Origin: Umbilicaria muhlenbergii
Lineage: Eukaryota > Ascomycota > Lecanoromycetes > Umbilicariales > Umbilicariaceae
Assembly (NCBI GenBank): GCA_000611775.1
Contig: KK106982.1
Coordinates: 6,868,285 to 6,932,284, forward strand
Direction: 5' to 3'
Length of the DNA: 64,000 bases
Within the stretch, counting starts at the first letter, position 1, and each line of letters begins with the position of its first letter. Made by a program: the position numbers and the translations under genes. Positions 2,159 to 64,000 of the stretch are shown piece after piece. The notes under the pieces were generated by a model. The model did not search any database. It worked only from the letters and a program-made list of their open reading frames with translations, and was not told the origin of the DNA.

Positions 2159-2471
2159 GTGGCCTGGCAAACATCCGCCTTCCTGTTCATCCGGCCTCAG
2201 CTCTGTTCGTGTCGGAACGCTGTTCGTGTCTGTTGCAGCTATTTCGCCTATCTTCACATGCTGTTTCGGGCATATCAGGCCAAGGAATTTATATAAGACC
2301 ACTGAGCGGTCCTTAAATTGTTCGTTCGCACCAGTCTAGCACAGCAATCAGATCGAAAACCCCAATATGATAAGTGGCACTACAAACCCATTGTCCCCCA
2401 AAAAAACCAGCCCGCCCTCTTCGTATCGTCTCTAACCCCTCATCCTTATTCCCCCTCCCCCCCACTCCCCC
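2159..2471. other. Intergenic with TATA-like site, ending in C-rich tract at the gap
   Basis: A TATATAAG sequence lies at 2291-2298 on the plus strand. From about 2400 the plus strand becomes strongly C-rich (runs of C interrupted by T and A) until the assembly gap begins. This could be the start of a plus-strand gene hidden in the gap. Confidence 0.4.
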
Positions 2472-3356
2472 NNNNNNNNNNNNNNNNNNNNNNNNNNNNN
2501 NNNNNNNNNNNNNNNNNNNNNNNNNNNNNNNNNNNNNNNNNNNNNNNNNNNNNNNNNNNNNNNNNNNNNNNNNNNNNNNNNNNNNNNNNNNNNNNNNNNN
2601 NNNNNNNNNNNNNNNNNNNNNNNNNNNNNNNNNNNNNNNNNNNNNNNNNNNNNNNNNNNNNNNNNNNNNNNNNNNNNNNNNNNNNNNNNNNNNNNNNNNN
2701 NNNNNNNNNNNNNNNNNNNNNNNNNNNNNNNNNNNNNNNNNNNNNNNNNNNNNNNNNNNNNNNNNNNNNNNNNNNNNNNNNNNNNNNNNNNNNNNNNNNN
2801 NNNNNNNNNNNNNNNNNNNNNNNNNNNNNNNNNNNNNNNNNNNNNNNNNNNNNNNNNNNNNNNNNNNNNNNNNNNNNNNNNNNNNNNNNNNNNNNNNNNN
2901 NNNNNNNNNNNNNNNNNNNNNNNNNNNNNNNNNNNNNNNNNNNNNNNNNNNNNNNNNNNNNNNNNNNNNNNNNNNNNNNNNNNNNNNNNNNNNNNNNNNN
3001 NNNNNNNNNNNNNNNNNNNNNNNNNNNNNNNNNNNNNNNNNNNNNNNNNNNNNNNNNNNNNNNNNNNNNNNNNNNNNNNNNNNNNNNNNNNNNNNNNNNN
3101 NNNNNNNNNNNNNNNNNNNNNNNNNNNNNNNNNNNNNNNNNNNNNNNNNNNNNNNNNNNNNNNNNNNNNNNNNNNNNNNNNNNNNNNNNNNNNNNNNNNN
3201 NNNNNNNNNNNNNNNNNNNNNNNNNNNNNNNNNNNNNNNNNNNNNNNNNNNNNNNNNNNNNNNNNNNNNNNNNNNNNNNNNNNNNNNNNNNNNNNNNNNN
3301 NNNNNNNNNNNNNNNNNNNNNNNNNNNNNNNNNNNNNNNNNNNNNNNNNNNNNNNN
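2472..3356. other. Assembly gap (885 N)
   Basis: A continuous run of N. The left flank is C-rich and the right flank is G-rich on the same strand, so the missing sequence includes a switch in strand composition. G-rich DNA of this type is hard to sequence. Open frames drawn across the gap have no meaning. Confidence 0.98.
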
Positions 3357-3805
3357 GGGGGGAGATGAGGGGGGAAGAGAGGGGGGTTTTTCGGAGGGGT
3401 CGGCCATGATGGCGGGTGGTGGTGTTGGTGAGGAGAGTTTGGAGTGTACTGTCGTGGGGTGGTGGTAGAGGGATGTTTGTTGGAGAGTGGTTGGTGGAAG
3501 TTGGAGAGTAGGAGGTGGAAGTCGGTCGGGAAAGTTGGGGTGAGGTTCGTGTGGGTGCCGAGGTTAGCGCGGTGCGCGGGAGACGATCACCGAACGGGCA
3601 GAGACGGGGAACGAAATACGGTTTGGCACGTGTTTACGAGGGTTCACACCCGACATGCGGATGGAACGGCGACTTCTCTGTTATCCTTGTCATTTGAAGC
3701 AGTGCTCATCAACTCGCATATCGTACAGCAGTTGCGATCGACTATCGTAATCACAGCGAGCAGAAGACGTCAAGCTCAAGCGCTCAAGTCCCCATGGTTT
3801 CCTGT
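3357..3805. other. G-rich gap flank and intergenic DNA
   Basis: The first 200 bases are very G-rich on the plus strand. A 151-codon plus frame starts near 3444 but has a biased composition and no recognisable motif, so I do not call it. It may be the 3' end of a gene whose body lies in the gap. Confidence 0.35.
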
Positions 3806-5251
3806 TTACACAGACATGATGATATCCGCAGCTCCCAGGTCCACCCCCTCCTCCGTGACAGACACACCATCCAACACCTCGACCTCTCCCATCTCGTGAT
3901 CCAACCCGTCCATGCCATCGTGACCGGGAAGCTGTACCTCTGATGCCTCTTCCAGAAGCTCATCGTTGAGCTCCTTCCACAATCCCATGTCAAACTCTTC
4001 CCCATCTTCCTCTTGGATCTCGGACTCGCGTTTCGATCTTCTGCTTCTCTGGCTCGACTTCGACGGGCGACGACGACTGGTGATCATACCACGGAAGGCG
4101 CGTCGGACGCTCTCGCGGAAGCCTTTGCTTGCTTGCTCGCCGTCGTTGTTCTCTTTGCTATTTCCATCAAGACTGTACCGCATACGCTGTAACGGCGACC
4201 CATAACCAGAATCACACTCATCTTTATCTTCGCAGACGCCCATATTAACATAGGTCCGCATCCTCTTCCCTTTTGGCTTGTAGAGACCCAACTTGCGTAC
4301 CACAGCGGCGTCGGCGATCGGACGATTGTCGGTGGCGAAGTCGATGTGGGGAACTGGACCGGTGCGGTCTAAGACGTCTTCGAGATTTTGGAAGCAGCGA
4401 TCTTGAAAGGTGGGACGACACCGCTGACAGCACATGTAGGAGCATTTGGGAAGCATCCGAAGCGTAACTTGAATGCCGGGCATGGAGGGTACTGGTGGCA
4501 GCGAGTTTAGCTGAATACTCTTGGCTGGCGGAGATTGCTCGGCTGGAAGAATGTTCTGAGTGTTCTGGTTGTGGACTTCGGCAATGATGGGAAACGGTAA
4601 ATGAAGACTTGCATCGATGGAAGGTGAGGTGGCAGACTCTTGTGATGACGTTGAGGTGTTGCACTGTTCTGGTTCAGAGCTGGTAGGTTCGTTGAGTGTG
4701 GTGGGATGTTGATACTCTTCAAAAGCCTTCTCTGCAGCTGCGATGGTATCTCTGACCTTTTGTCTCTGTGCTTTCAGAACGTAGATGTGCTCCTCGGTGT
4801 AGTGGCCGTCTTCGATAGCCTTCTCCATCCATGGCTTCAACTTCGTTGGCTCCATCTTTTCTTTCTCCTTTGCTTTCGCGTCCTCCTCACTCTGGGCATC
4901 GAAGATGGCCTCCAACGAATTGGTGGTCATTGGCAGCTCTCCGCCATAGTCCTGACTGCATCTGTAGACGAAGCCAAAGTCCGAAGCACGATTGCAATTA
5001 ACACATAGGTGGCTTCCATACATTCGTGTCATTGTGAGATGAGAGCACGCTGCACGGCGCGAAGATAGGATACCGGGTGCCGTGAAAGCTGTGGTTTTCT
5101 GCGGCGGCACAGGGATCGGTGTTGCGATGGGATACATTGGCATGATGGTATTCCACGTGTTGCGAAGCATTGGTACAAGTGCTTCCCAAATGACCTCAAG
5201 TGGATCTTCTCCAAACGTGTAAGGTCGCTGTCCAAGTGGCGTGAGTGCCAT
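3806..5251 (-). CDS. Cysteine-rich hypothetical protein
   Basis: A single-exon frame of 481 aa starting at the ATG at 5249-5251. Two cysteine clusters are visible: one at about residues 68-95 (C-S-H, then C-V-N-C, then Y-R-C) and one at about 270-290 (C-S-Y-M-C-C-Q-R-C followed by D-R-C-F). Their spacing suggests a zinc-binding fold, possibly a treble-clef or RING-like arrangement split by a long disordered segment. A charged E/K-rich helix lies near residues 122-190 and a basic R/S-rich segment (SRRRPSKSSQRSRRSKRE) near 400-418, which could be a nuclear localisation signal. The last 60 residues are acidic. I do not recognise a named family; the composition fits a nuclear regulatory protein, but no function is assigned. 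Confidence 0.75.
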   Translation of the reverse strand: MALTPLGQRPYTFGEDPLEVIWEALVPMLRNTWNTIMPMYPIATPIPVPPQKTTAFTAPGILSSRRAACSHLTMTRMYGSHLCVNCNRASDFGFVYRCSQDYGGELPMTTNSLEAIFDAQSEEDAKAKEKEKMEPTKLKPWMEKAIEDGHYTEEHIYVLKAQRQKVRDTIAAAEKAFEEYQHPTTLNEPTSSEPEQCNTSTSSQESATSPSIDASLHLPFPIIAEVHNQNTQNILPAEQSPPAKSIQLNSLPPVPSMPGIQVTLRMLPKCSYMCCQRCRPTFQDRCFQNLEDVLDRTGPVPHIDFATDNRPIADAAVVRKLGLYKPKGKRMRTYVNMGVCEDKDECDSGYGSPLQRMRYSLDGNSKENNDGEQASKGFRESVRRAFRGMITSRRRPSKSSQRSRRSKRESEIQEEDGEEFDMGLWKELNDELLEEASEVQLPGHDGMDGLDHEMGEVEVLDGVSVTEEGVDLGAADIIMSV

Positions 5252-27898: not shown

Positions 27899-30800
27899 AT
27901 GGGGGAGCTCAGTATCAGTAAAGCCCTTGGTAAGGCCGGACATCGCCATAGCGGCTGGTGTGGTGACTTATAGCCTGCAGAGCGACTTGGATCGGGGGCG
28001 GTTAGAGAGCGTAGTGAGGGTCTCGCTGGTACGTTCCGTCCGTTATGAGTGACTCAGTTCTAAGGAATCTAGATTTGAAACATCTCCTGGTACAAAATAA
28101 AGGAAGCTCAAAGCTGTATGTAATCCTCTCCGTATGTTCCTACCTGTTATGGGGCTAATGGTCGGCTTCAGGGAGGCTCTTACGGACAAGGGATACCACA
28201 AGATCTTCGAAGCGCTATTCAATGTTGTCAGAAGTGAACGATCTAAATACTCAAAAGCTACTACAATAAGCACACAAGATACGCCAGCAAGGCGACTGTC
28301 GGCGTGTGCGGATGTGTTTCGGTTGGCTGTTGTCGCTGGTGTACGCAAGATACGGAGCAAGACTGTAAAGGCCTTGGTGGACCACATCACTCAAACGCTG
28401 CCCAATCCCGCCGGAGGATATTGCGAACCACTCTTGAACGACTACATCAAATCCTTGGGGACCATATTGGAATATCAGGCCCATCCCGAACACCTGAACA
28501 AGGAAGAATGGCACGTTGTCGTAGACTTCTGCATTGAAGGCATCAGTACGTTCAGCAGCACCCTCAATGGTCCCGATTCCAGGGAATCACATGGGCCTGA
28601 GGAATCCAATAGCCGCAGTGGTAATCGCAGCCGAGCTCAAACCCCCAGTACATCTATATCTCTGCTCGGTACGACTCATAAGACCAGCTTCCGCAGTACT
28701 GAAAACGCAACAGTCTCAAATCCAAGGAGTAATGCGGAGGAATTTATCCTGTGTTTACAGCATTTGACTTCCGTTTCAAATGCACCTATCCTTGATAGAG
28801 CACGCTCGATTTTGGAAGTGCTCATTAATCTGCTTCGGACGTCTGCAACTATTGGTCGAGCTCATCAAGCCACCTTCGTGTGTATAAATCATATTATTAA
28901 ACGCACCGTTACAGACGATGTAGCGTTAACTCAACATGCTATCAAGAATGTTATCCCCTTGATACGACGACTGTGGCACCCCAAATCTGGTACCCTCGGA
29001 GATGAGATGTTGAGTAGCTTGATATTAGCAGAGGCTTATCTACCGTGTCTGTTTCGATTCGGAGACTTTGAAGATTGCCAGTCCGAGTTACAGGGTCTCG
29101 TCGAAGTCTTATATGGTGAATACTCTAAGCGTGCGGAGAAAGATCAGCTGCAAATCGATGACTTGGAGTTCTATCTTCCTAAGAAAACCAAGCATAGGCA
29201 AACCCCATTAAGCATCAAAGCCTTCGGACTTCGCCCGGGCATTATCCGCGCTGAGCAGAATTGGGCTTTACTGTACATCGTCTCAAATTTGACTTCTATT
29301 TTGATTGCTCGAGGAAGCCCAGATGCGGAACATCCTTCCATTGAAGACCAGACTGGCTCCAACAAGCGCCGACGGCTGATGCAGCCACTTGATAGCCTCT
29401 TGCAACTGATAAGGCTAGCAACCGCGTCCGAAAAAGTCTGCGCCCTTCAGGCCCTTGCCTTGACCGTGGACATGGTCACTATCCCAGATCCCGACTTGCG
29501 AGTAATCTTGGATACTTTAACACCTTGTCTCTCCGAGGATAACGGAACTTTGAGCTCATGGGCAATGCTGGCCTTATCATGGTGAGCTATTTGCCCAGAA
29601 GCTGTCCCTAATGTGCTAATAGATAATTTACCCAGCTTGTCCTACCAAAAAGCCGCTTGTGTCGCAGGCCTCAAAGAGACGTGGCTACAGGTGTGGCGTA
29701 TTTCGTCAAGGAATGTAACGTCGTCGGTTGCTTGTAGAGCCGCCTGCCATGTGATGGGGATTGTCTTGGATACAGGCCTTGTCGACTTTGCGGATATCAC
29801 TGAATTCGTTGATGGTATGGTCTCTTCTGCCGATATGAACGGCCCTGCAGTGTTTGCGGATTCCTCGGTCACATTGTGGTCCACTATTATATCACTTAAA
29901 GGAAGAGAAAACCATGGGATGATCCACAACGTCATAGAGCGTGTTCTTCGTTGGCTATTCAGGAAATGGTCCCCAGGTAGGTTGCCTCAAGTGGAATACT
30001 AGGGACGTCAAAAAAACTTACCTCTATATGACAGCGAATTTTCAAGATCGGCTGTATGGCCTACATCTTGCCCACCATTGCCAGGCCCACGACATTGTTA
30101 GATTACTAGTCTCATGTCTAGGACTTGCAGTTGGCTCTCAGGAATCGCATCCCTACCTTGTCCTGGGAACGCTGTCGCAAGCACGTCTACGTTGCCAGAG
30201 GGATAGAACGCTGGTCAGCTACCTTACGATGGCAGAGGAAAGCTTATCTGCGGCCATCACAGCAGGAAGACCATCAGCCATCTCCTCTCAGGCGATCATT
30301 ATCCCGGATGTCCGCTTTCAGTTCCTAAGTGCCAGTCTAGTTGATCATTTAATTGCTGAGACGACAGCGCTTCTGCGTGACGACTCCCCCACCAGCCTGG
30401 GCGCGTCTCATATCATCAACCCAGACATTGTACGAGTTTTGAGCTACCTGTGTATTGTCAGCTATGCAGTTTCATCATGTCAGGCCATTCGAGACGCAAG
30501 AAAAATCGATCTTTTGCGCACTAGTACCGCGAAACTCAGGAAACTTCTTATCGATTGCATTGAAAGTCAGAGAGATCGCCAAGGCCTCATCGATGCTCTG
30601 CTCGTATCTATTGGTACAAGCCTCAGTCCGCTTAATGAAAGAGACGAGGAGTTGAGCCTGCATCACAGAGGTGCAATCGCGATGGCTCAAGGTTTCCCGC
30701 AAGACTTTTGGGGGCAGATTTCTCTCACCGATGGTCAATCGGTCGACCTAGAGTACGATATGCTGGATATGGATGAGGATTTCGAGTCCCAGGGAAGCCA

Positions 30801-33800
30801 CGCGAGAGTCGACAAAGCCAACACTGACGTTTCACACAATGAGATCGCCGCTGCGACGGATATCTCAGCTTTTCGACACTCCACGTCAGCAAGAATTTGC
30901 TATATAGCGACCAGGTTGACAGAAGGGGGTGGCAGTGACACAGTACCCTCTTCTTTTATCACATATTTGACGTCGCTGCGGCCGTCTGAGCTTCTCTTAT
31001 GTAGAAATATCCTCAAAGACATGGTTGGGCCTGTTTTGCGCATGTCTCGCGTCGATGCCGGTATTCTACTGGAACATCTAGCCGAAGAACTTCTCAGGTC
31101 ATACGACTTCGAAAGGTGCGAGGTAGCAATGGGTGTCTGCCTCGATGTCATGACGGGTTTGGCAGATATGTGGACCACCGCCGATGCTTGTTTGCTGAGC
31201 GATTGCGGTGCTGCTATGTACGAATGGTTCATCAAAGTTGCCTTGAGCAAGGGTATCGCTTCGCCTCACGTTCATATCTGTATTTCATCGATGCTTCAGC
31301 GAGTGATCAAGGTTCGTCCTGATTATGCCAAGAGTCTTTCCCTACCATCAGCAAGAACAAGTCTCTTCAGCGTCCTCGAAGAAGGTAATATTGCGGTCAA
31401 GTATCATGTGGGACGTAATATCTCGGAGATTTTTGGTCTCTTCGTTCTGAAAGAGCATGATGCCATCCTTGAAGACGTTATTAACAGCCTTCCAAGTGAA
31501 CGAGACTGGTCAGAAGGTATAGCTTTACGACTCTTAGCCTTAGCGCATTTAGCGGCTGCATGGTCAACGCTCCTCCGTCGATGTGTGTATGCTATGTTCG
31601 AGACACCTGGGCATATTCATGAGGCTACCGGTTATGCAAAGCAGTGTTTGAACCATGTATCTAGGTCGCTGGGTCTATCGAATGCTCAACAACTCTTCAG
31701 ACTATTTGCGTCTCAGATAATTTACACCTGGCTCGAAACCCAAGATATAAGATCTATTCCTTATGCAATTTTCGGATACAGCAATCTTGCTCATCTTCTA
31801 CGTGATATACAAGACGAAGTCGTCGGCCAGGTGGTCATGCGTTGCGACGAGACGGAAGCGACTCAGTTGGAAGAAGATCTCGGACAGCCGCTGGAAAAAC
31901 TTCTGGACACATCCTTTGGGAAAGCTGCAGCATATAGCATTGCTCGAGACGTCGCGGTTCCACCCTCACAAGGCGGACAAACATCTGGCGCTGACACTCG
32001 AGTGAGGAAGCTTCTTGGTAAAGTCAGATACGCAGCCTTACTTACCACCAAGTTTCCGGACGTGCTAGTGGTCTTCTTTCAAACAATGGACCAGGAAGAG
32101 CATATTGCGAAAGGCTTTCAAAAGCATCCAAACTATGGAACGGCCTATAAAGCCTACCAAAGGGTCATTTCTGCTGGTGTTTCTACTACCGTTCTACCAG
32201 CGAATCAGCAGCCGTCTTTCAGAGCTGGTTTTGTGTTTGACGAAATCGAGTTCTTGTGTCGTCGTACAAGCTATGACACGGATACTCTGTGGTCACCCGC
32301 CTTGTATGTCTATGTTCTCCGACGATTACTCGACATTATACATCCCGCACTGGGCTCTCTCCATGCCTGCTCCGTCCTTCGCAGGATACGGATCTTAACT
32401 AGCATGGCTGGCACCACTGCTCTACAAGATTATCCTCTAGAGATGGCCCTCCACGCATTGCAGCCTTTTCTGACAGATATACAATGCGCGGATGATGCCA
32501 TAGGACTGGTTCAATACCTTCTGGAGTACGGCAAACCATACCTCGCAAATACCCCATCTTTCCTCGCTGGTGTTGCAGTCTCGACCTTGGCTTCCATGAG
32601 GGCATTTTTAAACTCAACGCAAGAAAGCACTACCCAGGAGAGTCATTTCAAGGCCACTATGACAAAAGCGCGTGCTTTTCACTCCTGGTTTGGTACATTC
32701 TTAGATTGCTATACATCTCCCCAAATGACTGGCGCTTCGGAGCAGTCATTCAAGGCTATAATGAGGGCAGCACTGAACATTCGAACTAACGGTAACGCAA
32801 GGAAAGGGACATACGAGAGTGATTTGTTGATGGGGATTCTCGAAGACAGACACTCTGGTCGCAACCTTCTCAACCGACCCGCACAAGAACTCATCCTTGG
32901 CCTGCTTTGCGCAGCTTTTGAAGTTCCGAGTGACTTCCACGATGACATTCTCGGAGAAGACCAGCAAGCTGCTGCATTCGCGCCTACAGTATGGGAGACT
33001 TGTCAACGACAGAGGTACAGTCAGAGCTACCTTACTTGGACAGCACGGGTTCTCGGCCGAGCTTACGCTTCAACTGGACAGATGGTTGGAGAAATGGTGC
33101 GTGAAATATCATCCCAACTTGTCGAAAACACCCAAATGGAAAACGATACAGTGAAGTATGATAGTTCACGGTCCGCCCTCCTTCGAATACTTCGCGATGC
33201 ACTCCTTACCGATGATAGAGCGCATGTCGGCGTAGCTGAGCGGGCTCTGCAGCTGGTGGTTAGCAAAGCCCAGGGCAGCGAGCTACTTGTGGAGGTTGGC
33301 GAAGTGCTGCCAGATTCTCTTGTGAAAGCTCTTGTCTGGGACCCATACACCTGTCCGCTAGGACTTTGGGGCGCTCCTCAACAATACAGCTTGCAAGAGA
33401 GCGTGGGTTTTGACATGCACATTCCAGCTTCACTTTGGATCCAGCGTGTGTGCATTGCTCTGGCTTCCGGGGCTACGGACGATCCTCTTCTTGGAGGGCT
33501 ACCGCAACTGCTGGCTACTATTTCAGATTTGCCTGAACGAGCGTTCCCGTACATTCTGCATCTCGTCCTACTTCGAGAGACAGAGAGTATTCGAAACGCG
33601 AGGCGCATAATTTCTGAGGCCTGCCAGACTTGGTTTGAGGCATGCGATGAGACCACAACACCCCATGTAAAGATACTACTGAACGCTATACTGTACTTAC
33701 GGAGCCAAACGATCCCTAATGAAAGCAACAAAGCCGACCGTGATCGTTGGCTAGAACTCAACTATACTCAAGCCGGTGCAGCTGCAGCAAAATGTGGCAT

Positions 33801-36800
33801 GTTTAAGACAGCACTCCTCTTCGTTGAGATCAGTAGTTCAGAGACAGCCAGGGCGTCTAGACGATCATCAGCCGTTAAGGTTGACGTGCCGACAGACCTT
33901 CTGCTTCATCTATTCCAGAATATCGACGATCCGGACTCGTTCTATGGCGTTCAACAGCCCTCCAGCATCTCTACTATGATGGATCGATTGGCCTACGAGA
34001 ACGCTGGATTCAAGAGCCTCTCATTTCGAGGTGCCCACTATGATAGTGAAATGCGATACCTTAAGCGCGCCGACAAGTCAGATGAAAAGGGGCTGCTTCG
34101 AGTCCTAGATACTCTAGACCTAAACGGACTCTCCCATTCTTTGCTCACTAACCAGCTCATGGCCGATTCTGGCTTGGACGCCACAGATGCCATGTTGCGA
34201 ACTGCAAGGAAGCTGGAACAGTGGGATATCTCTGTCCCAATGGTTCAGCCCACCCATGCCGGTGCAATCTTTCGTGCTTTTCAAAGCTTGAACAGCACAT
34301 CTGAGTTATCAACAATACGCGCGTCTATCGACGATGGCTTTCTTGGCATAGTGCGACAGCTGCTGAATGGAAGGTCTGTTCGGTCGTCAGTACATGCGAA
34401 TCTCGGGGCTCTAGCCGTTCTAACTGAAATTGACGACGTCCTTGCCTCCACCACCTCTGAGCAGCTAGAGGAGACTTGGATTAGCTTGGAATCACGAAAT
34501 GCCTGGATGTATACTGAGAGGTATGTGCATATCTGTAGGAAACAGCTCGTCTTCGTAAACTAATCTCCATTAGTTTCGACCGCGTCAGCACCATCGTCTC
34601 CTGTCGAGAGACTCTTTTCAGTTCTGTTAGTAGAAGCAAGAACCTCCAAGGGATTCTGAAGGTGTCTCCTCGTGAAGCCCGCGTTATCGAGACTCGAGCA
34701 CTTCTAGCTTCCTCTAAGGTTAGTCGGCACCATGGAGCTCTACAGACCTCTTTAGCGACAGCTATATACCTGGCTCGCCTTGTTGGGCCCTGCGAAGAAG
34801 TTGGTGTGAACATCACTGCAGGTTCGAAATATGAAGAAGCCAACGTCTTGTGGGATCAAGGAGAAATGACAGCGTCCATCAGAATGCTTCAAGATCTGCA
34901 GCACGACATTGGCCTGAGCGGACAAGCCATTCAAGTCGGCAAGCCGGAGCTACTGGCGAAATTAGTAACCCACTCTGCTCCCAACATGCATACATCTTAC
35001 TGAACGTGACGTAGGGTCATCAGATGTCCGAGGCCCGTCTAGAGAAGCCAGATGAGATCATCCGCAATTATCTCGTGCCAGCAATCAAGGAGCTGAAAGG
35101 CAGCACGGAGGGCGATCAAGCAGGCCAAGTCTTCCATGAGTTTGCATCCTTCTGTGACAAGCAACTACAGAACGCAGACAATCTCGAAGACTTTAAGCGC
35201 ATCGAAAAGCTCCGTGAACGGAAAGAAGCCGAAGTCCGAGACCTCGAGAAGATGATTAATTCTGTGAGCTCACAGGCAAGAGAGAAAGACAACCTTAAGA
35301 GCCATCGTGCGAAAGCAAAGCAGTGGTTCGACTTGGATGACCGAGAGTTCCAACGCCTTCGAGACAGTAGGCAGGCTTTCCTTCGTCAAAGCTTAGAGAA
35401 CTACCTGCTGTGTTTGAAAGCTTGCGATAAGTATGACAATGATGCTCTACGATTCTCTGCCCTCTGGCTCGAACATTATAAAAATGAAGTAGCCAATACC
35501 GCCGTCGCCAAGAACATTGGCCGCGTCGGCAGTCGAAAATTCGCATCGTTGATGAATCAATGGTCCTCACGGCTTCTGGACGACACAAGCAGCTTCCAAT
35601 CTCAGCTCTCTTCTTTGGTCCTAAGGATATGCGTTGAACATCCCTACCATGGCATGTACCAGGTCTTTGCTGGGAGCAAAACCAAGGGAGGTAAGGACGA
35701 GACAGCGCTTTCGAGGAATGCTGCCGCTAGTAACATTGTGAATCAACTTAAAAACAACAAACGTGCATCCTCGACGTGGCTGGCTGTCCACAATACCAAC
35801 ATTAACTACGTGAGGTTTGCGATAGAAAAGCTTGACGACGCCAACATCAGGCCTGGATCAAAGGTACCTCTGCGCAAGTCGGCGGCCGGTCAAAAGCTCG
35901 ACCATGACGCTACCACCCAGCGAGTCCCACCTCCAACTATGAAAATCGAGCTACGTGCAGACTGCGACTACAGTAATGTGCCACTCATTACCAAGTTTCA
36001 ACCAGAGTTTACGGTAGCTTCCGGTATTAGTATGCCTAAGATACTGACAGCAATTGCGTCTGATGGCCTCAAATACAAGCAGCTGGCAAGTAAACTGCCT
36101 TTTAGATTATGGATATTAGCTAACGTTACCGCAGTTCAAAGGTGGCAACGATGATCTCCGGCAAGACTCTATAATGGAGCAAGTCTTCGAACAAGTCAGT
36201 AACCTCCTACAAGCTCAACGAGATACGCGGCAACGAAAGTTGGGAATTCGAACATACAAAGTGCTGCCTTTAACTGCGACATCCGGGATCATCGAGTTCG
36301 TCCCGGATACCATACCGTTACACGACTATCTTATGCCCGCCCACTTGAAGCATTTTCCGAAAGACATGAAGCCAAATGTATGCAGAAAACACATTGGTGA
36401 CGCGCAACCAAAGTCAGTGGACATTCGTATCAAAGTCTTCCGCCAAGTCACGGATCATTTCCATCCGGTGCTGCGGTACTTCTTCATGGAGCGATTTGAG
36501 AATCCGGATGATTGGTTCGCGCGGCGTCTAGCATATACGCGCAGCACCGCCGCCATCTCAATTCTAGGCTATGTCCTTGGCTTGGGTGACAGACATGGCC
36601 ACAATATCCTACTTGATGAGCAGACGGGAGAAGTGGTACACATCGATCTCGGGATCGCCTTCGAACAGGGTCGCGTACTAACTGTGCCTGAAGTCGTTCC
36701 TTTTCGTCTGACCCGTGATCTTGTCGATGGGATGGGCATCACCAAGACCGAGGGTGTATTCCGCCGCTGCTGCGAGTTCACCCTCGACGCGCTCCGCAAT

Positions 36801-37121
36801 GAATCTTATAGTATTATGACGATCCTCGATGTCCTCCGCTACGATCCACTGTACAGCTGGTCGCTGTCGCCGTTGAGGTTGAAGAAGATGCAGGATGCGC
36901 AGACTGAGGCGCCGCCTTCTCCGACGAGTGTTAGTGAAGATCAGGTGGCGAACAAGAAGAAGGATAATGAGCCGGGCGAGGCAGATCGAGCGCTCACTGT
37001 GGTGGCGAAGAAGTTGTCGAAGACGCTGAGTGTGACCGCTACGGTTAATGAGTTGATTCAACAGGCGACGGATGAGAGGAATCTGGCTGTTTTATTTGCG
37101 GGTTGGGCAGCATATGCATAG
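27899..37121 (+). CDS. TEL1: DNA-damage checkpoint kinase Tel1 (ATM family)
   Basis: Nine exons: 27899-27929, 27981-28028, 28073-28115, 28172-29581, 29636-29976, 30035-34520, 34574-34964, 35015-36085 and 36135-37121, giving 2935 aa. All joins keep frame. The small first exons rebuild an N-terminus with [17 protein letters not shown], the Tel1 TAN motif region. A long helical-repeat region, a FAT domain (about 1900-2400) and the PI3K-like kinase follow. Kinase landmarks are [12 protein letters not shown] (catalytic Asp near 2759), [11 protein letters not shown] (metal-binding Asp near 2778) and [20 protein letters not shown], the ATM/Tel1-specific activation segment. The FATC end reads [21 protein letters not shown]. 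Tel1 is recruited to double-strand breaks by Mre11-Rad50-Xrs2 and maintains telomeres. The last intron begins GC rather than GT. All motifs needed for activity are intact. Confidence 0.95.
36086..36134 (+). other. GC-AG intron in TEL1
   Basis: A 49-nt intron with GCAAGT at its 5' end and CAG at its 3' end. It joins KYKQL to [11 protein letters not shown], the invariant kinase segment, in phase 0. No GT nearby preserves this frame, so the GC donor is required by conservation. Confidence 0.85.
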
Positions 37122-55726: not shown

Positions 55727-56075
55727 AGGCTTTGTTGCATGGTAGCACGCTAGGAGTGTGTGCCAGTGTTGGGCCGCTTGGTGATGCTGGCGCTGGGGGA
55801 CGTGTAATGACAGCTTCCTCGCCAATGCAGCCTCTTCTGTTACCATACAAGGATAGTCGTGCAGGGAATTCTGAGCGACCGGTCCTGCCGGCACCGTGCC
55901 ACAGCATGATTTTTAGAACAAACTTTGTTTAACAAGATATGTTCAAGCCGCACTCTTGGATACCCGAGATGATTCGACAATGCCAATCCCCACCCTCTCC
56001 ACCCCCTTTCCGCGACCATCGTTGAAGACCGTCACACTCACGCCCCCACCCCCAATCCCCTCGCCACTATCCTTT
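55727..56075. other. Intergenic region between convergent genes
   Basis: 3' ends of DUG3 and GCV3. The part near 56.0 kb is very C-rich on the plus strand. No gene. Confidence 0.6.
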
Positions 56076-56903
56076 CTACTTCCCCTCACCCACCTCCTCC
56101 ACAAACTTCCTATACTCCCCACCCCCCATCAACCCCTCCATCTCCTTCCTATCACTCACCTCAATCCTCGCTATCCACCCCTCTCCCTCCGGCCCATTAT
56201 TAATCGTCCCCGGCTTCTCTTCCAGCATAGTATTCCCTTCGATGATCTTCCCTGACACAGGCGTCATGATGTCGGAGGCAGATTTCACGGATTCTACCGC
56301 GCCGATCGTGTCGCCGGCTGAGACGGATAGGGAGGCGGTGGGGAGCTCCACGTAGACTACGTCGCCGAGGGCAGAGGCGGCGTAGGTGGTTATGCCGATG
56401 GTGCCTAAGACGGCGTGGGAGGGGGCGTTAGTGGTGTGGGGTTGTAGGGTGGTGGGGTAGGGTTGGGTTGGGTGTGGAGAATTGGGTCCGGGGAAGGGAT
56501 TGAGAGAGAGGTGGTGGTCTGTAGGAAGACAGAGAATAACGTAGGGAGGCTGGTCAAGGAAGACAGCTTGCAGAGCGCAGAGTCGCATGCGTACCCGTCT
56601 TGCCATCCTCAGACAACTCAATCCATTCGTGATCTTTCGTATACTTCTTCTCTCTTACTGTCAACCCACGCCAATCAGCAAGGTTGCACTTCAGGTGAGA
56701 CTTTACCCACTCCTCATGCAGATGGCATACATACAAGCTGTCGAACTCCCGAACGTCCTCGCGGGCGCGCTGGCTAGTGGGACATTTACCCTTGGTTTGG
56801 GCGATTGGCTCCGAGAGCTCCAGGTTATTCTGAGGGCCGGCCGTGCGGGCGTGGAGAGCACAGACGAGCTCACTGGCAGGCGGAGTCGAGCTATCGCTGC
56901 CAT
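56076..56903 (-). CDS. GCV3: Glycine cleavage system H protein, mitochondrial
   Basis: Three exons: 56735-56903, 56595-56657 and 56076-56404, 186 aa. The first exon is a mitochondrial presequence (MAAIARLRLPVSSSVLSTPA, rich in R, S and A). The mature protein starts with REKKYTKDHEWIELSEDGKTG, continues over a 190-nt intron into GTIGITTYAASALGDVVYVEL, and carries the lipoylation site in ESVKSASD (Lys of SVKSA). The C-terminal helix ends YRKFVEE. H protein shuttles the aminomethyl group between the P, T and L proteins of glycine cleavage and also passes lipoic acid to other enzymes. Length and residues are normal. It is head-to-head with the mitochondrial ribosomal gene at 57123, only 219 bp apart. 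The C-to-G composition switch in the sense direction is also seen here. Confidence 0.94.
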
Positions 56904-57122
56904 TGTTGCGGCCTCCCTCTGTGGTCTTCGTAGGGCTCACGACAGATGCTGCGTGCTGTTGGGACGGGTGTTGCAGGAGTGCTGGATTCGGTTAGCGTTG
57001 GCGGCGGGAAGGGATTGGCGAATTGGAAGCTGGGGCTCTTGGTTAGCGTCACTATTTTTCGACGACAGACAGAAGTGTAAGAGCGTGGGTATCTACTGGA
57101 GAGTGGAATATTGGGCGCGGAG
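56904..57122. promoter_or_regulatory. Shared promoter region of GCV3 and mitochondrial S6
   Basis: 219 bp between two divergent starts, both of genes for mitochondrial proteins. This is short enough for shared control. No named factor site is visible. Confidence 0.65.
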
Positions 57123-57636
57123 ATGCTTTACGAGCTGATAGCTGTGGTAAGACTCGTGTTTGTTCGTCTATGGATAATGGCTGACAGCGATGAAGGTCCG
57201 CCAGGGCAACATCGCCGAAGTCAAAGAGTTCGTCTTCCCCATCCAAACCACCTCTCGCCCTCCCCTCAGCTCCCGCCTTCCCCCTCTCCCCCATCCTCCC
57301 ACCTCATCTGACAATCTACCTAGAATCGCCCTCACAGCCGGGGCCCTCGTTCTCAACTCCGGCGGCGTCGTCCGCGGCATAACCAACTGGGGCGTCTTCC
57401 TGCTCACCGCCCCCACGCGCAAACATCAAGCCCGGCATGAACGTGGTCACCACTTTATCATGCGCTTCGATAGTTCGGTAGAAGGCCAGATTGGTGTCAG
57501 GAAGTTGTTGGCGCTCGATCCGAGGATGGTCCGGTTTAGTGTGGTCAAGTTGGGGACGACGTTGCAGGAGATTAAGGATGTGGGAGGGACGGTGGATTGG
57601 AACAATGGAAGAATGGCGAATACGACTTCGAGGTAG
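57123..57636 (+). CDS. MRP17: Mitochondrial small-subunit ribosomal protein bS6m (Mrp17)
   Basis: Three exons: 57123-57146, 57196-57227 and 57324-57636, 122 aa. The first two exons are tiny (24 and 32 nt). They rebuild MLYELIAVVRQGNIAEVKE, the first strand and helix of the S6 fold; the third gives IALTAGALVLNSGGVVRGI, NWGVFLL and HFIMRFDSS, then DPRMVRFSVVKLG. The S6 fold and the GGVVRGI-x-NWG segment are diagnostic. The protein sits on the platform of the mitochondrial small subunit. Intron 2 has a GTTCGT donor and a very C-rich interior, but the frame demands it. The length is typical of fungal Mrp17. Confidence 0.93.
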
Positions 57637-58359
57637 TGGTAGCGGATGGGAATGGGGCTGGCGTTTTGGGATGGCTGCATGTGTTAGGCGTTGTTGGTGA
57701 GTTGTTTGTGGGCAATTGAGGGGGTGCTTTGCCGGTGTGCTGCCGAGACCTGCTGACTTTGTTCGTTAGGACTCTTGCTCCTGCGTCCAGACACGGCGAA
57801 TTTAATCTAGAACTAGCGATGCTTCCTTACCATTTGCTCCTTTACATGCTCAAATGCACATGTCCCTGGTATATCGATGTGTTATGCCGCCTTTCATGTG
57901 ATGGCTCCACACTTACCACGCTCTTCTCCTGTCTATAAGCCTTTATGTTGCAAATGGCCATCTGACTTCCGCATGTTCTCTACCGCATATTCACTACTGC
58001 ATTTCCTGCCCGCATGAGACAGTGAACAAAGCATTCTTTCTTACCGCGGTCTCGTGAATGACGAGGGCATTTCATGCAAGCCCCAATGAAGCAGAATTCA
58101 CCGGCTGGTATGCCGTGAATAAAGACGAAGTTTGTTTCCAACTATCACTGGGGGGTACATAAACCAGGCTCCATACAGAGGTAAGTAAATCATGTCATAA
58201 TTGCTCTATGTATACCTTCCCCATTATGAGAAACAATCTCTGTCTTCACACCTCTATTCTCCTATGTCCTAACTGAATATGCTTCGCCTGTTCATTCCCT
58301 GGCCTCACATCTTCCAGTCGGCTCTCCTTCCCTGGATCAATTGAAAACAATCCAGCGCG
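57637..58359. other. Intergenic region, start of repeat cluster
   Basis: No supported gene. Beyond 58.36 kb, degenerate coding sequence begins and fills the rest of the window. Confidence 0.5.
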
Positions 58360-59400
58360 CTGAAATGGTTTTTGGAGGCGTACTAAACCAGGCGACAGCG
58401 GACAAAGCTGACCAAGCTGTAAGGATCCACCTGTTTCTCAAGGAGGAACTGTAACAGGTATCTTATTTTTCATACGTACTGACCTCGTAGCTAGGCTGTC
58501 CAGGAGATCATCTGGGGATCGAGCCATGCGCTGGGGCAGTCTCTGACACTAAGGCCTTTGAGCACCCCATTCGGACCGAGATCTACGCTCTTGCCAACGA
58601 GCGATTGAAAAGCGGTGCTACAATCTCCTTGCCTGGCGCTGCTGGCAGAGAGGTTACTGCCGTGGACTGTTAGCACTGTAGCAGACACATCAGACTTGAG
58701 GTGTTCCACAGGATTGACGTAACACGGAGTAATTACCAAGAGCACAGCCAAATTCCCATCGAGGTAGAAGGCAGCATTGACCAATTGGTCCAACCCAAGC
58801 CCTCGAAAGAACTCGTTTACTATTGCATGGCACAGATGCAGATCGACGCTACGGCCGCGGATGAGAAATACATATGGTAAGGACTCCTCCATCCTAAGAC
58901 CTTGAGATTTCTGTCATGGGCTACTGTACGTTGGGCGGGTAAGAGATTTTGAAAGGCAACAGCGGCTACTGGACCCGAAAATCGTTCGTGCAATGGAAAA
59001 CTTTTATTCCAAGTTTCGGAAAAGGGCGGCTGCGGCGGAAGAGACCGATTCCCCAGAAGCGCCGTCACATAGTGGCGACAATTCGCAGTACCATCATGCG
59101 AGATATACCAGCTGCCGCTACATAATGAGCTATGGGTGGCAACTGGAGGCTCTCGGTTCGCACGACCCAGACTGTTTACAAGCAGCTTATGGGCAACCCG
59201 CCATGGACAATTTCGTTGATCGACTGTCAGATCCAGATACCATCAATGCCATGGAGATGCTAGAGACTAAGTGGCTAGCAAACAAGCACCATGACAAAAT
59301 TTTCAGTCCCTGGATTACCCTGGCAGCACTCCCAAATCAAGGATTCCGACCTCGTTCAATCCATCCTCTCAGAAGACAACTCCTCGGCCTTACATAAACC
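58360..59400 (+). pseudogene. Degenerate coding remnant, TET/JBP-like array (first unit)
   Basis: The plus strand carries several coding-like pieces in changing frames: AEMVFGGVLNQATADKADQA near 58.36 kb, HIRLEVFHRIDVTRSNYQEH near 58.69 kb, YYCMAQMQIDATAADEKYIW near 58.82 kb and a 134-codon frame at 58993-59397 with MENFYSKFRKRAAAAEE and DCLQAAYGQPAMDNFVDRL. The AAYGQPA segment resembles the AAYGQPA at about 59.97 kb and the EAYGDD at 60.68 kb in the other units, so I group it with them, though the rest differs. It is broken in several places. Independent origin cannot be excluded. Confidence 0.4.
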
Positions 59401-59559
59401 CCAAGGTCCAGCCTTTGTGGTGACAACATCAAACAAGCCGGATTAGGAAGGGGCTAAGGCCTTAACCAACGCGGAAGGATATACCCTTAAGATGCCTGTC
59501 ATAACATTACCCTTTATGAGCTATCTCTTCCCACAGGAGCTGAAGGACAACAATGACAG

Positions 59560-60318
59560 TGAACTTCCTCCCACTCCCACCTCCCCAAGAGTGAACCTCA
59601 AGTTACTCTGAAATTCAACGCCCCCACTGCCTCTTGTCAGCTCAGGAACATCTGCCTCATCATCTCACTGCTCTGAAGACGCCCATGAGGTTATTGAAAG
59701 AGAGTTTGAAGAAGACACAAGATATAAAAGGACCACCCGTGTACCCTCAGACATTCTACGAGGCCTTCGTGAGAATAGGTAGACGATAAGGGAACTAAGT
59801 GAGAGTTGAGTTCCAATCAGGCAACCTGTTATGATAGGTTCTACCAAAGACGCTGAGATACGGTGGCAACGACACAGTCCGGGGTTATGCGAGACATCCC
59901 TAAAGCCTCTATCCACTGGGCTATGGTCAAGGACTGGGAAGCCTTGTGCTTTCATCATTTAGATGGTCTGTAGGCTGCGTATGGGCAGCCTGCGGGGGAT
60001 AGATTTCATGATGTCGACCTGTACTTCTCGGTCGAGCCACCCCACCTGCCGGATGAGCAACGCCATCCATTTCATGAGGAGATGCTGGAGGCTTACGAAG
60101 AAGTTTCAAAGCAGACAGGGGGTTACTCTGGGGTTGCACATATCGGCCGCTGGCACATGCGGGGCCACGAACGTGCTATTCATCCCAAGCTCCTGAAGAG
60201 TGCCGAGCCTCGGCCAAATACCTCAACGAGGACAGAAGTTTGGGAGAAATCAGAGTATAATCGGAAATGGTATAGAGTTTCCTCTGGGAGTGAAGTCCAT
60301 TTAGTGTTATGTTGACCA
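59560..60318 (+). pseudogene. Degenerate TET/JBP-like unit, second copy
   Basis: A charged N-terminal-like segment (HEVIEREFEEDTRYKRTT) near 59.68 kb is followed by a core near 59.97-60.2 kb: AAYGQPAGDRFHDVDLYFSV, PPHLPDEQRHPFHEEML, GVAHIGRWHMRGHE. These align in order with the third unit (EAYGDD, PPRLPDAQRYPFHAEFL, HIGHWHMTGHDE). The frame is interrupted more than once, and the copy ends before any dioxygenase motif, with the next unit beginning about 60 bp later. Same strand and orientation as the other copies. Confidence 0.55.
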
Positions 60319-60375
60319 ACACCGCGGCATAGTGAAGAATTAATGTGTTACCACCAGCCATCCGGAAGTGTCAAG

Positions 60376-62422
60376 GCTAGACTTGTGTCGTCTGGGCCAC
60401 TATCTGCGCCGAAGCACTCCGCCAGTTGTACAAGGATCCCGCCTTGGGTCCTACACTTGAGCAAGAGTTGAGCCATGGCCAACATTGTCTCAAGCTAAGG
60501 GAATCAGTCAAGCTCTTTAGGTGAAGCTGGAAGGGCGAGAAAATTGACACATACCACCAGAAGAAGAGGGACGACGTCCGTTCAGAGCAGCTACTGGAGG
60601 ACTTACCTGGCGACACCATACTCTGGTTGGTAGACGGCGACGGGAAGGAAATCTGCTGGCTTGATCCGCGCGGCCTGCAAGAGGCCTACGGAGACGATGT
60701 CGTGGATAGGATTACAGAAGACTATATCACAGTCTTCTCGTTAAATCCCCCACGACTTCCGGATGCCCAAAGGTACCCTTTCCACGCGGAATTTCTGGAG
60801 GAAAACCCTCAGTTCCGCGCTCCCGACGGTTGCTCGGGTCTCTCCCACATCGGCCATTGGCACATGACTGGTCATGACGAGTCTGAGATATCTAATAATA
60901 CCTTGAAGACGAAAGACTCATTTGGCCACTCATCAACGTGTGACCAGCTCTTGCACCAGTTCATACACCATGCCAGCGGTCATGTTACACGAGCTGTTGA
61001 CTTGGCGTTTGGTGTCATAGATCCGGAATGCGAGACCATTACAGGGCTGTTTTCGAAAAGAGCCCGGAGTTGGTCAATATGAATACCACAGATAGAGAGC
61101 TCATTTCTCTACGTGCATATCTGTGTAGTGTTCAGACCGAATGACACGTGGATCTCAAAGATTGGAAAGGCGGATATGCCTGGATGACCCCGTTCGGATT
61201 TTATTCAGGTTAGTCCTTTGGGGCTTCTGCATACTTAATACGGCTGGTAGTGAACAATCAGAGAGAATGAGCCTTCAGGTCGGGCAAGACAATCTTGGGG
61301 ATACAAGCGGAGGGAACAGGGGGCATGAGGAAGCCTCCCAGCAATCATGAGCGTTACAGCTGGGAGACGTCAGGGAAGGTGGCAGCAGCTCAAGTGTCAA
61401 GAAAGAGGGACAAGACATGATGTTGAGCATTCGCCAAAGTATTGAAGGGCCAGGATCGAGGATTGAACCTTTACAGGTGGCAGACGACTCTTCAGATGAT
61501 GATCCAGACAATATCTTCAAGAGAGCCCTCCCTCCCGGGCTATTAAACAGCCTTCAAAATCGTCCAAGGCAGACAGAAAATCAGTTCACGGCGATAAACG
61601 CCCCATCTTGAGCCACAAACCAGTCCACAGATACCACCGTTCCAGTCCAAAGCACACCAGTCAGATTACAGCAGCTAGCGATTCAGCCCATGATCGCGCT
61701 TCAGCTGCAGACTCATCCACTGGTGTGGACTCCCCTCGACGCGCTCGAAATGCATTGAAACGAACGACGGAGTCTGATGACATTGATACAGCGTCCAGTG
61801 CTTCTAAGAGGAAAAGGACGTATAAGACCGAGCGGGAGAAAAGAATGGCCAAGCCAGAGATCACCGACCTGGCCCCCCAGGATGAGTGGCGGTCAGTGCG
61901 CGATCAGAGGTAGAGATTAGGTGAATCCTAATCTGTAGTTTGACTTCCATTAATTGGTGAACCGCTAGATACCTCCACCATATCACGGACTGGAAGGGTG
62001 AGTACCGCTATTGCATAGTGCATACAACTCACGAGTCAGTGAGAGCGGAGGTCGGGGAAGGTAAACACGGAAAAGGCCAAGGGGACATGGGTGACGAAGC
62101 AGAAGCTGAGGAACTTGAGGGAGAAGACGAGAACGCCAGTGACGATGTCCGCGGGTCCGAAGATAGCAACGAGGGCGTCACTGAAGGTGAGGAAGAGGAG
62201 GATTGCGCTGATCATGCGGCTGCGATGGAGCCCAGTGAGAGACGAGTTGCGATTCAGGCTTTCGGGGAAGATAGGATGAATCTAGAGAGTATGGAAGGTG
62301 GTGACAACGGAAGAAAAAGGAGCTTCCAGGGCGAAGATCTTTTGGAGGGTAACTCTGCTGGTAGCGGTCGCCAGCGTTTAGAGACTACCCATAATTACCG
62401 AAAAAGAGTGAAACGTTGAAAC
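60376..62422 (+). pseudogene. Best-preserved TET/JBP-like (Tet-like 2OG-Fe(II)) dioxygenase unit
   Basis: Order of blocks: ALRQLYKDPALGPTLEQEL and LKLRESVKLF (60.4-60.5 kb); a 151-codon open stretch (60627-61082) with WLDPRGLQEAYGDD, PPRLPDAQRYPFHAEFL, HIGHWHMTGHDE and LLHQFIHHASGHVTRAVD; then NTTDRELISLRAYL and HVDLKDWKGGYAWMTPFGFY (61.1-61.2 kb); and RYLHHITDWKGEYRYCIVHT (61.97-62.02 kb), running into an acidic tail with a final RKRVKR. HVD gives an HxD iron pair; the distal His (LHHIT) and Arg (EYRYCIV) complete the expected Fe(II)/2-oxoglutarate site. The frame is broken at about three points, and the two halves of the fold are 0.75 kb apart, separated by S/K/R-rich sequence containing SKRKRTYKTEREKR. 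It therefore looks inactive as it stands, unless spliced in a way I cannot see. Confidence 0.55.
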
Positions 62423-62779
62423 TCTATCAAGGGCATTTCGACTGTAGTGACTTGACGACTATGTGATCGATGGATCTGCATCTATTGTTCAACACAGCTC
62501 TTCTAAGGGTCTCTCATCCACGCATCGGAGCATTGTTGGGAGTAAGTCTATATGTAAAAAGTCAAGAGAATCTCAACTAGGAGGGTGGTGAGGCATTTGA
62601 AAGATTAACATAGATACGAAACCCTTAGGCCCTGTGGTTTCAATATATCTGCCGCGCTATACATTCATTTCAGTTTTCGTGATACGCAATCCTCCGTCTC
62701 TTAGTCGAGCCTACCCTTCAGGCCTCTTGAATCGACCACGTCTAAGTCCTTTATAACGGCTATTGACTCCTCAAACCTG
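62423..62779. other. Spacer between array units, no supported gene
   Basis: About 360 bp with stops in all frames and no recognisable motif. Confidence 0.5.
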
Positions 62780-62960
62780 CCGAAGGCATTCCGGCCATTG
62801 GAAAGCTCTACTCCTCTGTGGAACCACCAAGCCTTCCTGGTGCACACAGGCATCCTCTTCATACACAATTCTTCAACAAAACTCTGACTTCAGTAATGAC
62901 GAAAGCTACTCTGGGCTGTCCCTCATTGACCTTAAGCACATCTAGATATATCAGTCATGA
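62780..62960 (+). pseudogene. Short fragment of the TET/JBP-like unit
   Basis: Contains EPPSLPGAHRHPLHTQFF, equal in position to the PPxLPDAxRHPFHxExL block of the other units, followed by SYSGLSLIDLKHI, which resembles CSGLSHIGHWH. The flanking blocks are absent. It is a decayed fragment on the same strand. Confidence 0.5.
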
Positions 62961-63029
62961 CACCCTCAATGCCCGGCAAAGTCGTGGCTTCGACAGCACT
63001 AACGCCTGGGATCGCGCTAGGTAGTCCCT

Positions 63030-64000
63030 ATGCTTCCAGCAACACCACGCCACGAGCGAGTGTCGATGGTTCTAAGCTGGCGCGGTGAAGGGTGGGAAAG
63101 CCCATTGGAGATAGTGGTCAAGGCCAAAGTACTACATTTACCGCTCAACTCAATCGCAACACACAAGATAGCGAAGGCCAAACAATACCCATTGATGATA
63201 CTTTGGCAGCGCCTGCAGCGCGATTACTCGCAGTTGGCACTACACAGCGATGCGCATCACGATCAGCACTTGGAGCTTGAGGGCCAACGATGAGCTGAGG
63301 GAGCAGGTAGAGAGGTGGAAGGTCGCGGCAGAGAGGGAACCGCGTTGACCCATAAATATGACGCCGCGATACAAAGATCATTCCCGGTCGCAGTGATGTA
63401 CCAAGCTCTGCGGAGCGACTCTGACTTTTCTGTGTGGTTGTACGGATACTCTTAAGTTCGCCAGAGGGAGGAAAAGAGTGTGGGAGGTTGCATAGCGCAG
63501 TGGCAAAGCTGGCCCCGCAAGTACAATCGAACCGACCGATACCGCCAGAGAGCCTGAGACGGGGCCGCTGTCCGGAATGAGTTTCTGCAAAGGATGCCGA
63601 AAGCGACATCAATCTGGTCGGTGAACAAAACGAAAAGACGTTTGGATTTCATCATAGTTCGGGCGTGTAAGAGGCCTATGGAAGTGACAGTCTTTAGAGA
63701 ATCAAAGATGACCTTCATACATACTTCTCTGTGAAACCTCCCCAGCTTCCGGACGCACTCCGCCATCCCTTCCACGATGAGCTACTTAGGACTCAACCTC
63801 AACTTGCCAAGAGTCATGGCATTTTCCGCTTGTGCTCACATTGCGCACTAGCACATGACCGGCTATGGAGAGTCGGAAGTGTCTCCGGATGTGATTCGTA
63901 CAAGAGATCTACGCCCGGCTAGCTCTCACGCTGAAAAGCTACTTCATCAGCTTTTGAAGAACGCTTGCGGCCACGTCACGCGAATTGTCGACCACTGGTT
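63030..64000 (+). pseudogene. Degenerate TET/JBP-like unit, runs off the window
   Basis: Begins with a polar, coiled-coil-like segment (ANDELREQVERWKVAAERE near 63.3 kb) and YDAAIQRSFPVAVMYQALR. The conserved core follows: EAYGSDSL near 63.68 kb, YFSVKPPQLPDALRHPFHDE near 63.73 kb, HMTGYGESEVSPDVI near 63.86 kb and LLHQLLKNACGHVTRIVDHW at the window end. The GHVTRxVD block equals that of the 60.4-kb unit. Several interruptions are present. The dioxygenase motifs would lie beyond the window. Confidence 0.55.

What the first reader, a model, noticed from the sequence alone, without database searches (positions are those of the whole stretch)
58360..64000. Tandem array of decayed TET/JBP-like 2OG-Fe(II) dioxygenase genes
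At least four same-strand units share blocks in the same order: EAYG(D/Q), PPxLPDAxRHPFH, HWHMTGHxE and LLHQ...GHVTRxVD. The best unit continues to HVDLKDWKGGYAWMTPFGFY (an HxD pair) and then LHHITDWKGEYRYCIVHT (distal His and Arg). Seen directly: the repeated blocks and the HxD, His and Arg. Known: fungal Tet-like dioxygenases of the TET/JBP family, which modify 5-methylcytosine in DNA, have this order and have spread in some fungi together with KDZ-type DNA transposons. Inference: this is a local expansion that has decayed. Such arrays are mostly reported from basidiomycetes, so an ascomycete cluster would be notable.
Basis: partly seen in the sequence, partly recalled or inferred. Interest (0 to 1): 0.75.

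Follow-up and report, generated by a model that had tools for sequence, protein, structure and literature searches.

The report
Decayed tandem TET-like fungal genes
A stretch of an ascomycete fungal genome holds five broken, side-by-side copies of an old protein-coding gene whose best-preserved copy ends in a stretch resembling the enzymes that oxidise methylated DNA bases; the repeat is real, but the enzyme identity is likely rather than proven.

Summary
Five same-strand units (A 59053-59214, B 59833-60312, C 60525-62419, D ~62806-63000, E ~63507-64000, cut by the window end) share blocks in one order. In five DNA alignments they agree at 67/76/44% of codon positions 1/2/3, so they diverged as protein-coding genes before breaking. 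No RIP signature; nearby frames stay open up to 1581 codons, so assembly error is unlikely.

The TET/JBP reading is partly supported. Of the units in full view only C has the supposed core. Its last part (YLHHITDWKGEYRYCIVHTTHE, joined by a likely 59-nt intron into a 285-codon frame) scores 11.3 bits against a profile of CcTet, NgTet and seven virus Tet_JBP proteins (0 of 5000 shuffles). Against: no Pfam Tet_JBP match at E<=10, HxD not recovered in register and preceded by a stop, only chance PDB matches, useless fold model, no relatives in the collections searched, and a blind window scan is not significant (2 of 20 shuffled windows as good).

No transposase found. The ascomycete transposon TETs I found in print are Pezizomycete and HxE-type. 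Probably a decayed local expansion of an unrecognised ascomycete TET-like family.

The parts
59053..59214 (+). Unit A: partial copy (MRDIPxA block and AAYGQP block, now in two different frames); surrounding open frame 58906-59394 of uncertain extent
   Evidence: blastn to unit B 59844-60007, E 3.4e-4, codon-position identity 0.70/0.79/0.37; tblastn AAYGQP block E 0.001; frames
59833..60312 (+). Unit B: MRDIPKA, AAYGQP, PPHLPDEQRHPFH, HIGRWHMRGH; in-frame stops at 59854 (TGA) and 59971 (TAG); too little room before unit C for a catalytic core
   Evidence: tblastn to unit C E 2.5e-22; stops listed
60525..61082 (+). Unit C, first part: LWLVDGDGKEICWLDPRGLQEAYGDD, PPRLPDAQRYPFH, HIGHWHMTGHDES, LLHQ..GHVTRAVDLAFGVIDPE; 185 codons open after a TGA at 60522
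   Evidence: codon-usage best frame mostly +0
61082..61207 (+). Unit C, HxD segment in another frame: ...CSVQTE-stop-HVDLKDWKGGYAWMTPFGFYSG; HVD at 61145-61153, TGA at 61142-61144
   Evidence: codon-usage best frame +2 at 61020-61080; no in-register profile match
61208..61860 (+). Unit C, long low-complexity, charged stretch (frames +1 then +0) with a basic KRKR-type cluster; lies between HxD and distal His
   Evidence: reading it as a disordered insert is inference
61910..61968 (+). Likely 59-nt intron, phase 2 (GTAGAG...GCTAG); with it removed 61503-62419 reads 285 codons to a stop
   Evidence: no RNA evidence
61969..62419 (+). Unit C, last exon: YLHHITDWKGEYRYCIVHTTHESVR (candidate distal His 61976 or 61979, Arg 62006), then acidic tail and stop
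   Evidence: Tet profile hit, 11.3 bits on the spliced piece, 0 of 5000 shuffles; top hit of 332 and 327 in six frames of the window; highest codon-usage score of 57600-63880
62806..63000 (+). Unit D: PPSLPGAHRHPLH, frame-shifted degenerate SGLSxIxxxH block, ISHDTLNARQS
   Evidence: blastn to C E 1.7e-8 over 62811-62941; tblastn E 5.7e-6
63507..64000 (+). Unit E: QRMPKAT, EAYGSD, PPQLPDALRHPFH, H-stop-HMTGYGESE, LLHQLLKNACGHVTRIVD; frame changes and stops (63555, 63695, 63849); cut by the window end
   Evidence: tblastn to C E 7.4e-17; blastn E 4.5e-11; stops

Best explanation
A local, same-strand tandem expansion of one ancient ascomycete gene, each copy in view now broken by ordinary mutation (not RIP). 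The ancestral protein probably had a conserved N-terminal region (LWxVDxDGKEL..EAYGD..PPxLPDAxRHPFH..HWHMTGHxES..LLHQ..GHVTRxVD), then a double-stranded beta-helix of the Fe(II)/2-oxoglutarate dioxygenase type with HxD, a long charged, probably disordered insert, and a closing strand pair with distal His and Arg (LHHITDWKGEYRYCIVHT). If so, the intact enzyme would bind Fe(II) through HxD and His and 2-oxoglutarate through Arg, and oxidise a methyl group on a DNA base, as CcTet does with 5mC and 6mA. Shown: the repeats, their past as protein-coding genes, the breaks, and the Tet-like match of the H..R piece. Inferred: iron site, insert, base-oxidising activity. The present copies should have no enzymatic activity (E unknown beyond the window).
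For: Copies conserved most at codon position 2 and least at 3: 272/357 and 157/353, with 237/354 at position 1; pooled p=3e-18 over five partly overlapping alignments. Spliced H..R piece of unit C scores 11.3 bits against a profile of nine real sequences (CcTet, NgTet, six phage and one IMG/VR protein; members listed); 0 of 5000 shuffles reach it, best 6.3. Unspliced, the same place is the top hit of 332 and of 327 over six frames of the 64 kb. All seven virus records match PF12851, 3 of 7 over its cut-off. CcTet binds metal by H326, D328, H376 and the 2OG analogue by R385 (PMC11040006, passages): H376 to R385 is 9 residues, as from the second His of LHH to Arg in unit C. The intron joins two frames into 285 open codons. 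Ungapped, HVDLKDWKGGYAWMTPFGFYSG shares H, D and, counted from D, G+7, G+15, Y+17, S+18 with CcTet 326-346 (my reading).
Against: No Pfam family at E<=10 for pieces or joined read-through or at E<=0.1 for six frames of 57700-64000. HxD half not found in register: the only profile match there (3.4 bits, 28 of 5000 shuffles as good) aligns KDWKGGY to another strand. As a blind search of the window the H..R hit is not significant: 2 of 20 shuffled windows reach 5.9 bits; with the full-length profile it is second; against CcTet alone by Smith-Waterman it is third (H..R half) and fourth (whole stretch) among distinct places. PDB sequence searches: chance matches, E>=1.3, or none. Only one of the four units wholly in view carries the catalytic part, and its HVD follows a stop.
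Confidence: 0.57

Rival explanations
1. A decayed tandem array of an uncharacterised ascomycete gene family with no relation to 2OG-Fe(II) oxygenases; HVD and LHH..R are chance resemblances.
For: No curated profile match and only chance PDB matches; HxD out of register; blind scan of the window not significant; the N-terminal blocks, the only part shared by several copies, match nothing in the libraries searched.
Against: The H..R piece beats 5000 of 5000 shuffles against an independent Tet profile, and its place is the top six-frame hit of the window for that half profile.
Confidence: 0.3
2. Cargo of a DNA transposon (KDZ, Helitron, IS3EU or other), amplified with it and now decayed.
For: Published fungal TET/JBP genes are often transposon cargo (PMC12730594, parts 1-5 of 7 read); same-strand clustered copies.
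Against: No Pfam domain in any frame of 57700-64000 at E<=0.1; inverted repeats found are chance-like 20-25 nt pairs; copies only 59-64% identical and confined to one place among housekeeping-type genes.
Confidence: 0.1
3. Intact multi-exon genes misread as decayed: the stops and frame changes are introns.
For: One convincing intron exists in unit C (61910-61968) and opens 285 codons; fungal genes have many short introns.
Against: Stops fall inside conserved blocks (59971 before AAYG; 63849 inside H-x-HM; 61142 directly before HVD); unit B lacks room for a C-terminal half before unit C starts.
Confidence: 0.03

Closest known systems
CcTet (Coprinopsis cinerea TET dioxygenase, PDB 7vpn, 8jkk)
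   Same: LH...GE(Y)RYC..H strand pair; His-to-Arg spacing of 9; ungapped agreement at H, D, G, G, Y, S after HxD (alignment by eye)
   Different: CcTet has 50 residues between H326 and H376; unit C has about 258 codons from HVD to the distal His, intron removed. The N-terminal blocks of the array matched no PDB chain beyond chance.
PE-type TET/JBP of Pezizomycete and Agaricales transposons (Kojima 2025, PMC12730594)
   Same: The only ascomycete TET/JBP genes that I found in print; multicopy
   Different: PE type has HxE where unit C has HVD; in ascomycetes they lie in Helitron or IS3EU transposons, none seen here.
Animal TET proteins (recalled, not tested)
   Same: Long disordered insert between HxD and the distal His
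   Different: No sequence comparison with animal TETs was made here

Membership tests
TET/JBP (Pfam PF12851 Tet_JBP) | Match to the family profile | tested here: not met
   no match for window pieces at E<=10 or six frames at E<=0.1; the same library recognises a typed Tet-like positive control at 2.2e-11. HMMER's filters drop most weak matches.
TET/JBP (Pfam PF12851 Tet_JBP) | HxD iron-binding pair at the start of the core | tested here: inconclusive
   HVD present in unit C after an in-frame stop; the real-sequence profile does not align it in register; my typed composite does, third among window hits, but it was typed after seeing the window
TET/JBP (Pfam PF12851 Tet_JBP) | Distal His and 2OG-binding Arg on the last strand pair | tested here: met
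   LHHITDWKGEYRYC; 11.3 bits against a real-sequence Tet profile, 0 of 5000 shuffles; spacing as in CcTet. One unit only, and not significant as a blind window scan.
TET/JBP (Pfam PF12851 Tet_JBP) | Double-stranded beta-helix fold | tested here: inconclusive
   Only the N-terminal part was folded; mean pLDDT 37.4 and meaningless PDB matches
TET/JBP (Pfam PF12851 Tet_JBP) | Oxidation of a methylated base | not testable with these tools
   needs an intact orthologue and an assay
PE-type transposon TET | HxE in place of HxD | tested here: not met
   unit C reads HVD
TET-carrying DNA transposon (KDZ and others) | Transposase gene and terminal repeats | tested here: not met
   no Pfam domain in 57700-64000 at E<=0.1; no convincing terminal repeats in 57500-64000. 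Beyond 64000 not seen.

The most novel reading that the evidence does not exclude
A previously unrecognised ascomycete TET/JBP family, with HxD, its own N-terminal region and an animal-TET-like disordered insert inside the core, expanded in tandem as host genes without any transposon, stayed under selection for a long time, and then died together at this locus.
Probability: 0.27. Interest if true: 0.65.

Novelty: new variant of a known kind. Interest (0 to 1): 0.42.

Why it matters
Enzymes that oxidise 5-methylcytosine are reported in fungi mainly from basidiomycetes and, in ascomycetes, from Pezizomycete transposons (PMC12730594). A host-gene-like tandem TET family in another ascomycete lineage would mean that base oxidation, and a counterweight to methylation or RIP, was once more widespread in filamentous ascomycetes, and that its loss can be dated and compared with the loss of DNA methyltransferases. 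The class of this fungus is not settled here, so whether it lies outside Pezizomycetes is open.

Tried and rejected
Rejected: RIP as the cause of decay (TA/AT 0.56-0.80 in eight 1-kb bins against 0.70 for the window; C/T-type differences between copies lowest at CpA, 0.26, highest at CpG, 0.46). Assembly error as cause (open frames of 1581, 1541 and 1098 codons nearby). Transposon cargo, for lack of evidence.

Led nowhere: relatives in IMG/VR, GTDB contigs (36, 70), plasmids and phages: none, as expected of collections that are not fungal. AlphaFold of 60525-61079 with five alignment rows from four units (B, C, D, E): pLDDT 37.4, so its Foldseek search means nothing. CcTet stretch sought in IMG/VR: none. 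CcTet scan of the window by Smith-Waterman: H..R place third (half) and fourth (whole stretch) among distinct places. Full-length Tet profile: same place second. HxD half: not recovered. The typed composite puts the H..R place first and the HVD place third, but I do not count this, for the reason below. Own genome not held. A sigma-70 scan has no bearing on a fungus. L008 was fetched but translated off its frame; it is in neither half profile. Half profiles: H..R from CcTet, NgTet, L001-L007; HxD from CcTet, L001-L007.
Full report
Observation. I read 56000-64000 and its frames. Self-comparison confirms a same-strand family of five units between 59053 and the end of the window: A 59053-59214, B 59833-60312, C 60525-62419, D about 62806-63000, E about 63507-64000, cut by the window end. 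Best pairs: C-B E=2.5e-22, C-E 7.4e-17 (tblastn); at DNA level 59-64% identity, E from 4.5e-11 to 3.4e-4 in five alignments. AYG is in A, B, C, E; PPxLPDAxRHPFH in B, C, D, E; HWHMTGH in B, C, E, with a frame-shifted relic in D; LLHQ..GHVTRxVD in C and E. HxD and the distal His/Arg occur in C only; E ends before that point. 58360-59052 shows no similarity to the units beyond chance-like short matches.

Past as genes. In the five DNA alignments, identity at codon positions 1/2/3 is 237/354, 272/357 and 157/353 (pooled chi-square p=3e-18; single alignments p from 2e-7 to 0.012: C-E 0.69/0.76/0.42, B-E 0.61/0.73/0.52, C-D 0.64/0.80/0.49, B-C 0.73/0.77/0.40, A-B 0.70/0.79/0.37). The alignments share units, so the pooled p is not fully independent, but each shows the pattern. 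The copies therefore diverged while coding for protein. They are now broken: stops at 59854 and 59971 (B), 61142 (C, and 60522 just before its open frame), 63555, 63695, 63849 (E), frame changes in A, C, D and E, truncation of A, B, D. Neighbouring frames are open over up to 1581 codons, so poor assembly is an unlikely cause. RIP is not seen.

Unit C. Codon usage trained on ten open frames of the window gives, along unit C, best frames mostly +0 (60480-60960, but a minus frame at 60780), +2 (61020-61080), +1 (61140-61620), +0 (61680-61800), a minus frame at 61860-61920, and +2 (61980-62280). The last change of plus frame is explained by a likely 59-nt phase-2 intron, 61910-61968, which joins ...DEWRSVRDQ/R to YLHHITDWKGEYRYCIVHTTHESVR; with it removed, 61503-62419 reads 285 codons to a stop. 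The change between about 61000 and 61082 and the TGA at 61142, directly before HVD, have no such explanation that I could find and are taken as breaks. About 258 codons (intron removed) separate HVD from the distal His, against 50 in CcTet (326 to 376; PMC11040006, passages); much of this is charged, low-complexity sequence with a basic cluster. Animal TETs have a long insert at a comparable place (recalled, not tested).

Is it TET/JBP? Curated profiles say no or nothing: no Pfam family at E<=10 for the eight inputs and the six window inputs (its seventh, the typed positive control, hit Tet_JBP at 2.2e-11), none at E<=0.1 for six frames of 57700-64000. In one search (E<=1) the six array pieces gave one chance match, E 0.26, to an unrelated viral family; the other two inputs were neighbouring genes. 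PDB sequence searches gave chance matches, E>=1.3, or none. I built a small profile from CcTet, NgTet and phage/IMG-VR members; PF12851 recognises all seven of those virus records at E 1.1e-7 or better, 3 of 7 over its cut-off. Its H..R half puts 61967-62035 first among 332 and 327 hits in six frames of the 64 kb, at 5.3 and 5.9 bits; but 2 of 20 shuffled windows have a hit of 5.9 or more, so a blind search is not significant, and with the full-length profile the place is second. On the spliced 52-residue piece the score is 11.3 bits, E 8.8e-6 as a single test, and 0 of 5000 shuffles reach it. The HxD half is not recovered: 3.4 bits, 28 of 5000 shuffles as good, and the aligned residues are KDWKGGY in another register. 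CcTet alone by Smith-Waterman ranks the H..R place third or fourth. My reading is that the H..R strand pair is probably real and HVD is a plausible but unproven partner.

Context. The window is from a filamentous ascomycete: Nup192 and Tel1 match entries 7mvu and 6sky best (that these are Chaetomium is recalled), and other genes include mitochondrial DNA polymerase, a cullin, PIG-Y, glycine cleavage H protein and ribosomal S6. The class could not be settled. No Pfam transposase was found in the array; the 20 long open frames scanned elsewhere in the window gave none either.

Literature. Kojima 2025 (PMC12730594; parts 1-5 of 7 read, plus passages) reports transposon TET/JBP genes in Pucciniomycetes, Agaricomycetes and, in Ascomycota, Pezizomycetes; those of Pezizomycetes are of a PE type marked by HxE. 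CcTet residues are from passages of PMC11040006. A 2026 review (PMC13297926, passages) repeats that distribution. Iyer et al. 2014 is not held and is known to me by recall and by citation only. The listings of my searches, seen as titles and abstract openings, showed no report of a TET/JBP tandem array in other ascomycetes; that covers the held open-access library only.

Verdict. A real, ancient, decayed tandem gene family; probably, not certainly, TET/JBP-like. Its copies in view are broken; the ancestor most likely oxidised DNA bases (inference). By the rule of membership it is not filed as TET/JBP, since the family profile was tested and not met.

Noticed in passing
59854-59856 and 63555-63557: Units B and E carry a TGA at the same aligned codon, and B-E has the highest third-position identity (0.52) of the five alignments: one may descend from an already broken copy.
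   Followed up: partly
2472-3356: 885 N; this gap accounts for most of the apparent GC dip to 0.307 at 2001-4000.
   Followed up: partly
61503-62419: With the likely intron removed, the C-terminal part of unit C is open for 285 codons, and its acidic tail has the highest codon-usage score of the array: odd for a long-dead pseudogene.
   Followed up: partly
63060-63500: Frame +0 upstream of unit E reads as a possible helical N-terminal region (HKYDAAIQRSFPVAVMYQALRSDSDFSVWLYGY) not recognised in other units; no Pfam match.
   Followed up: partly
28101-37118: A Tel1/ATM-type kinase (TAN, PI3K and FATC domains) spread over several long open frames.
   Followed up: no
aligned units, 59053-63992: C/T-type differences between copies are most frequent at CpG (0.46) and least at CpA (0.26), which would fit past cytosine methylation rather than RIP.
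   Followed up: no
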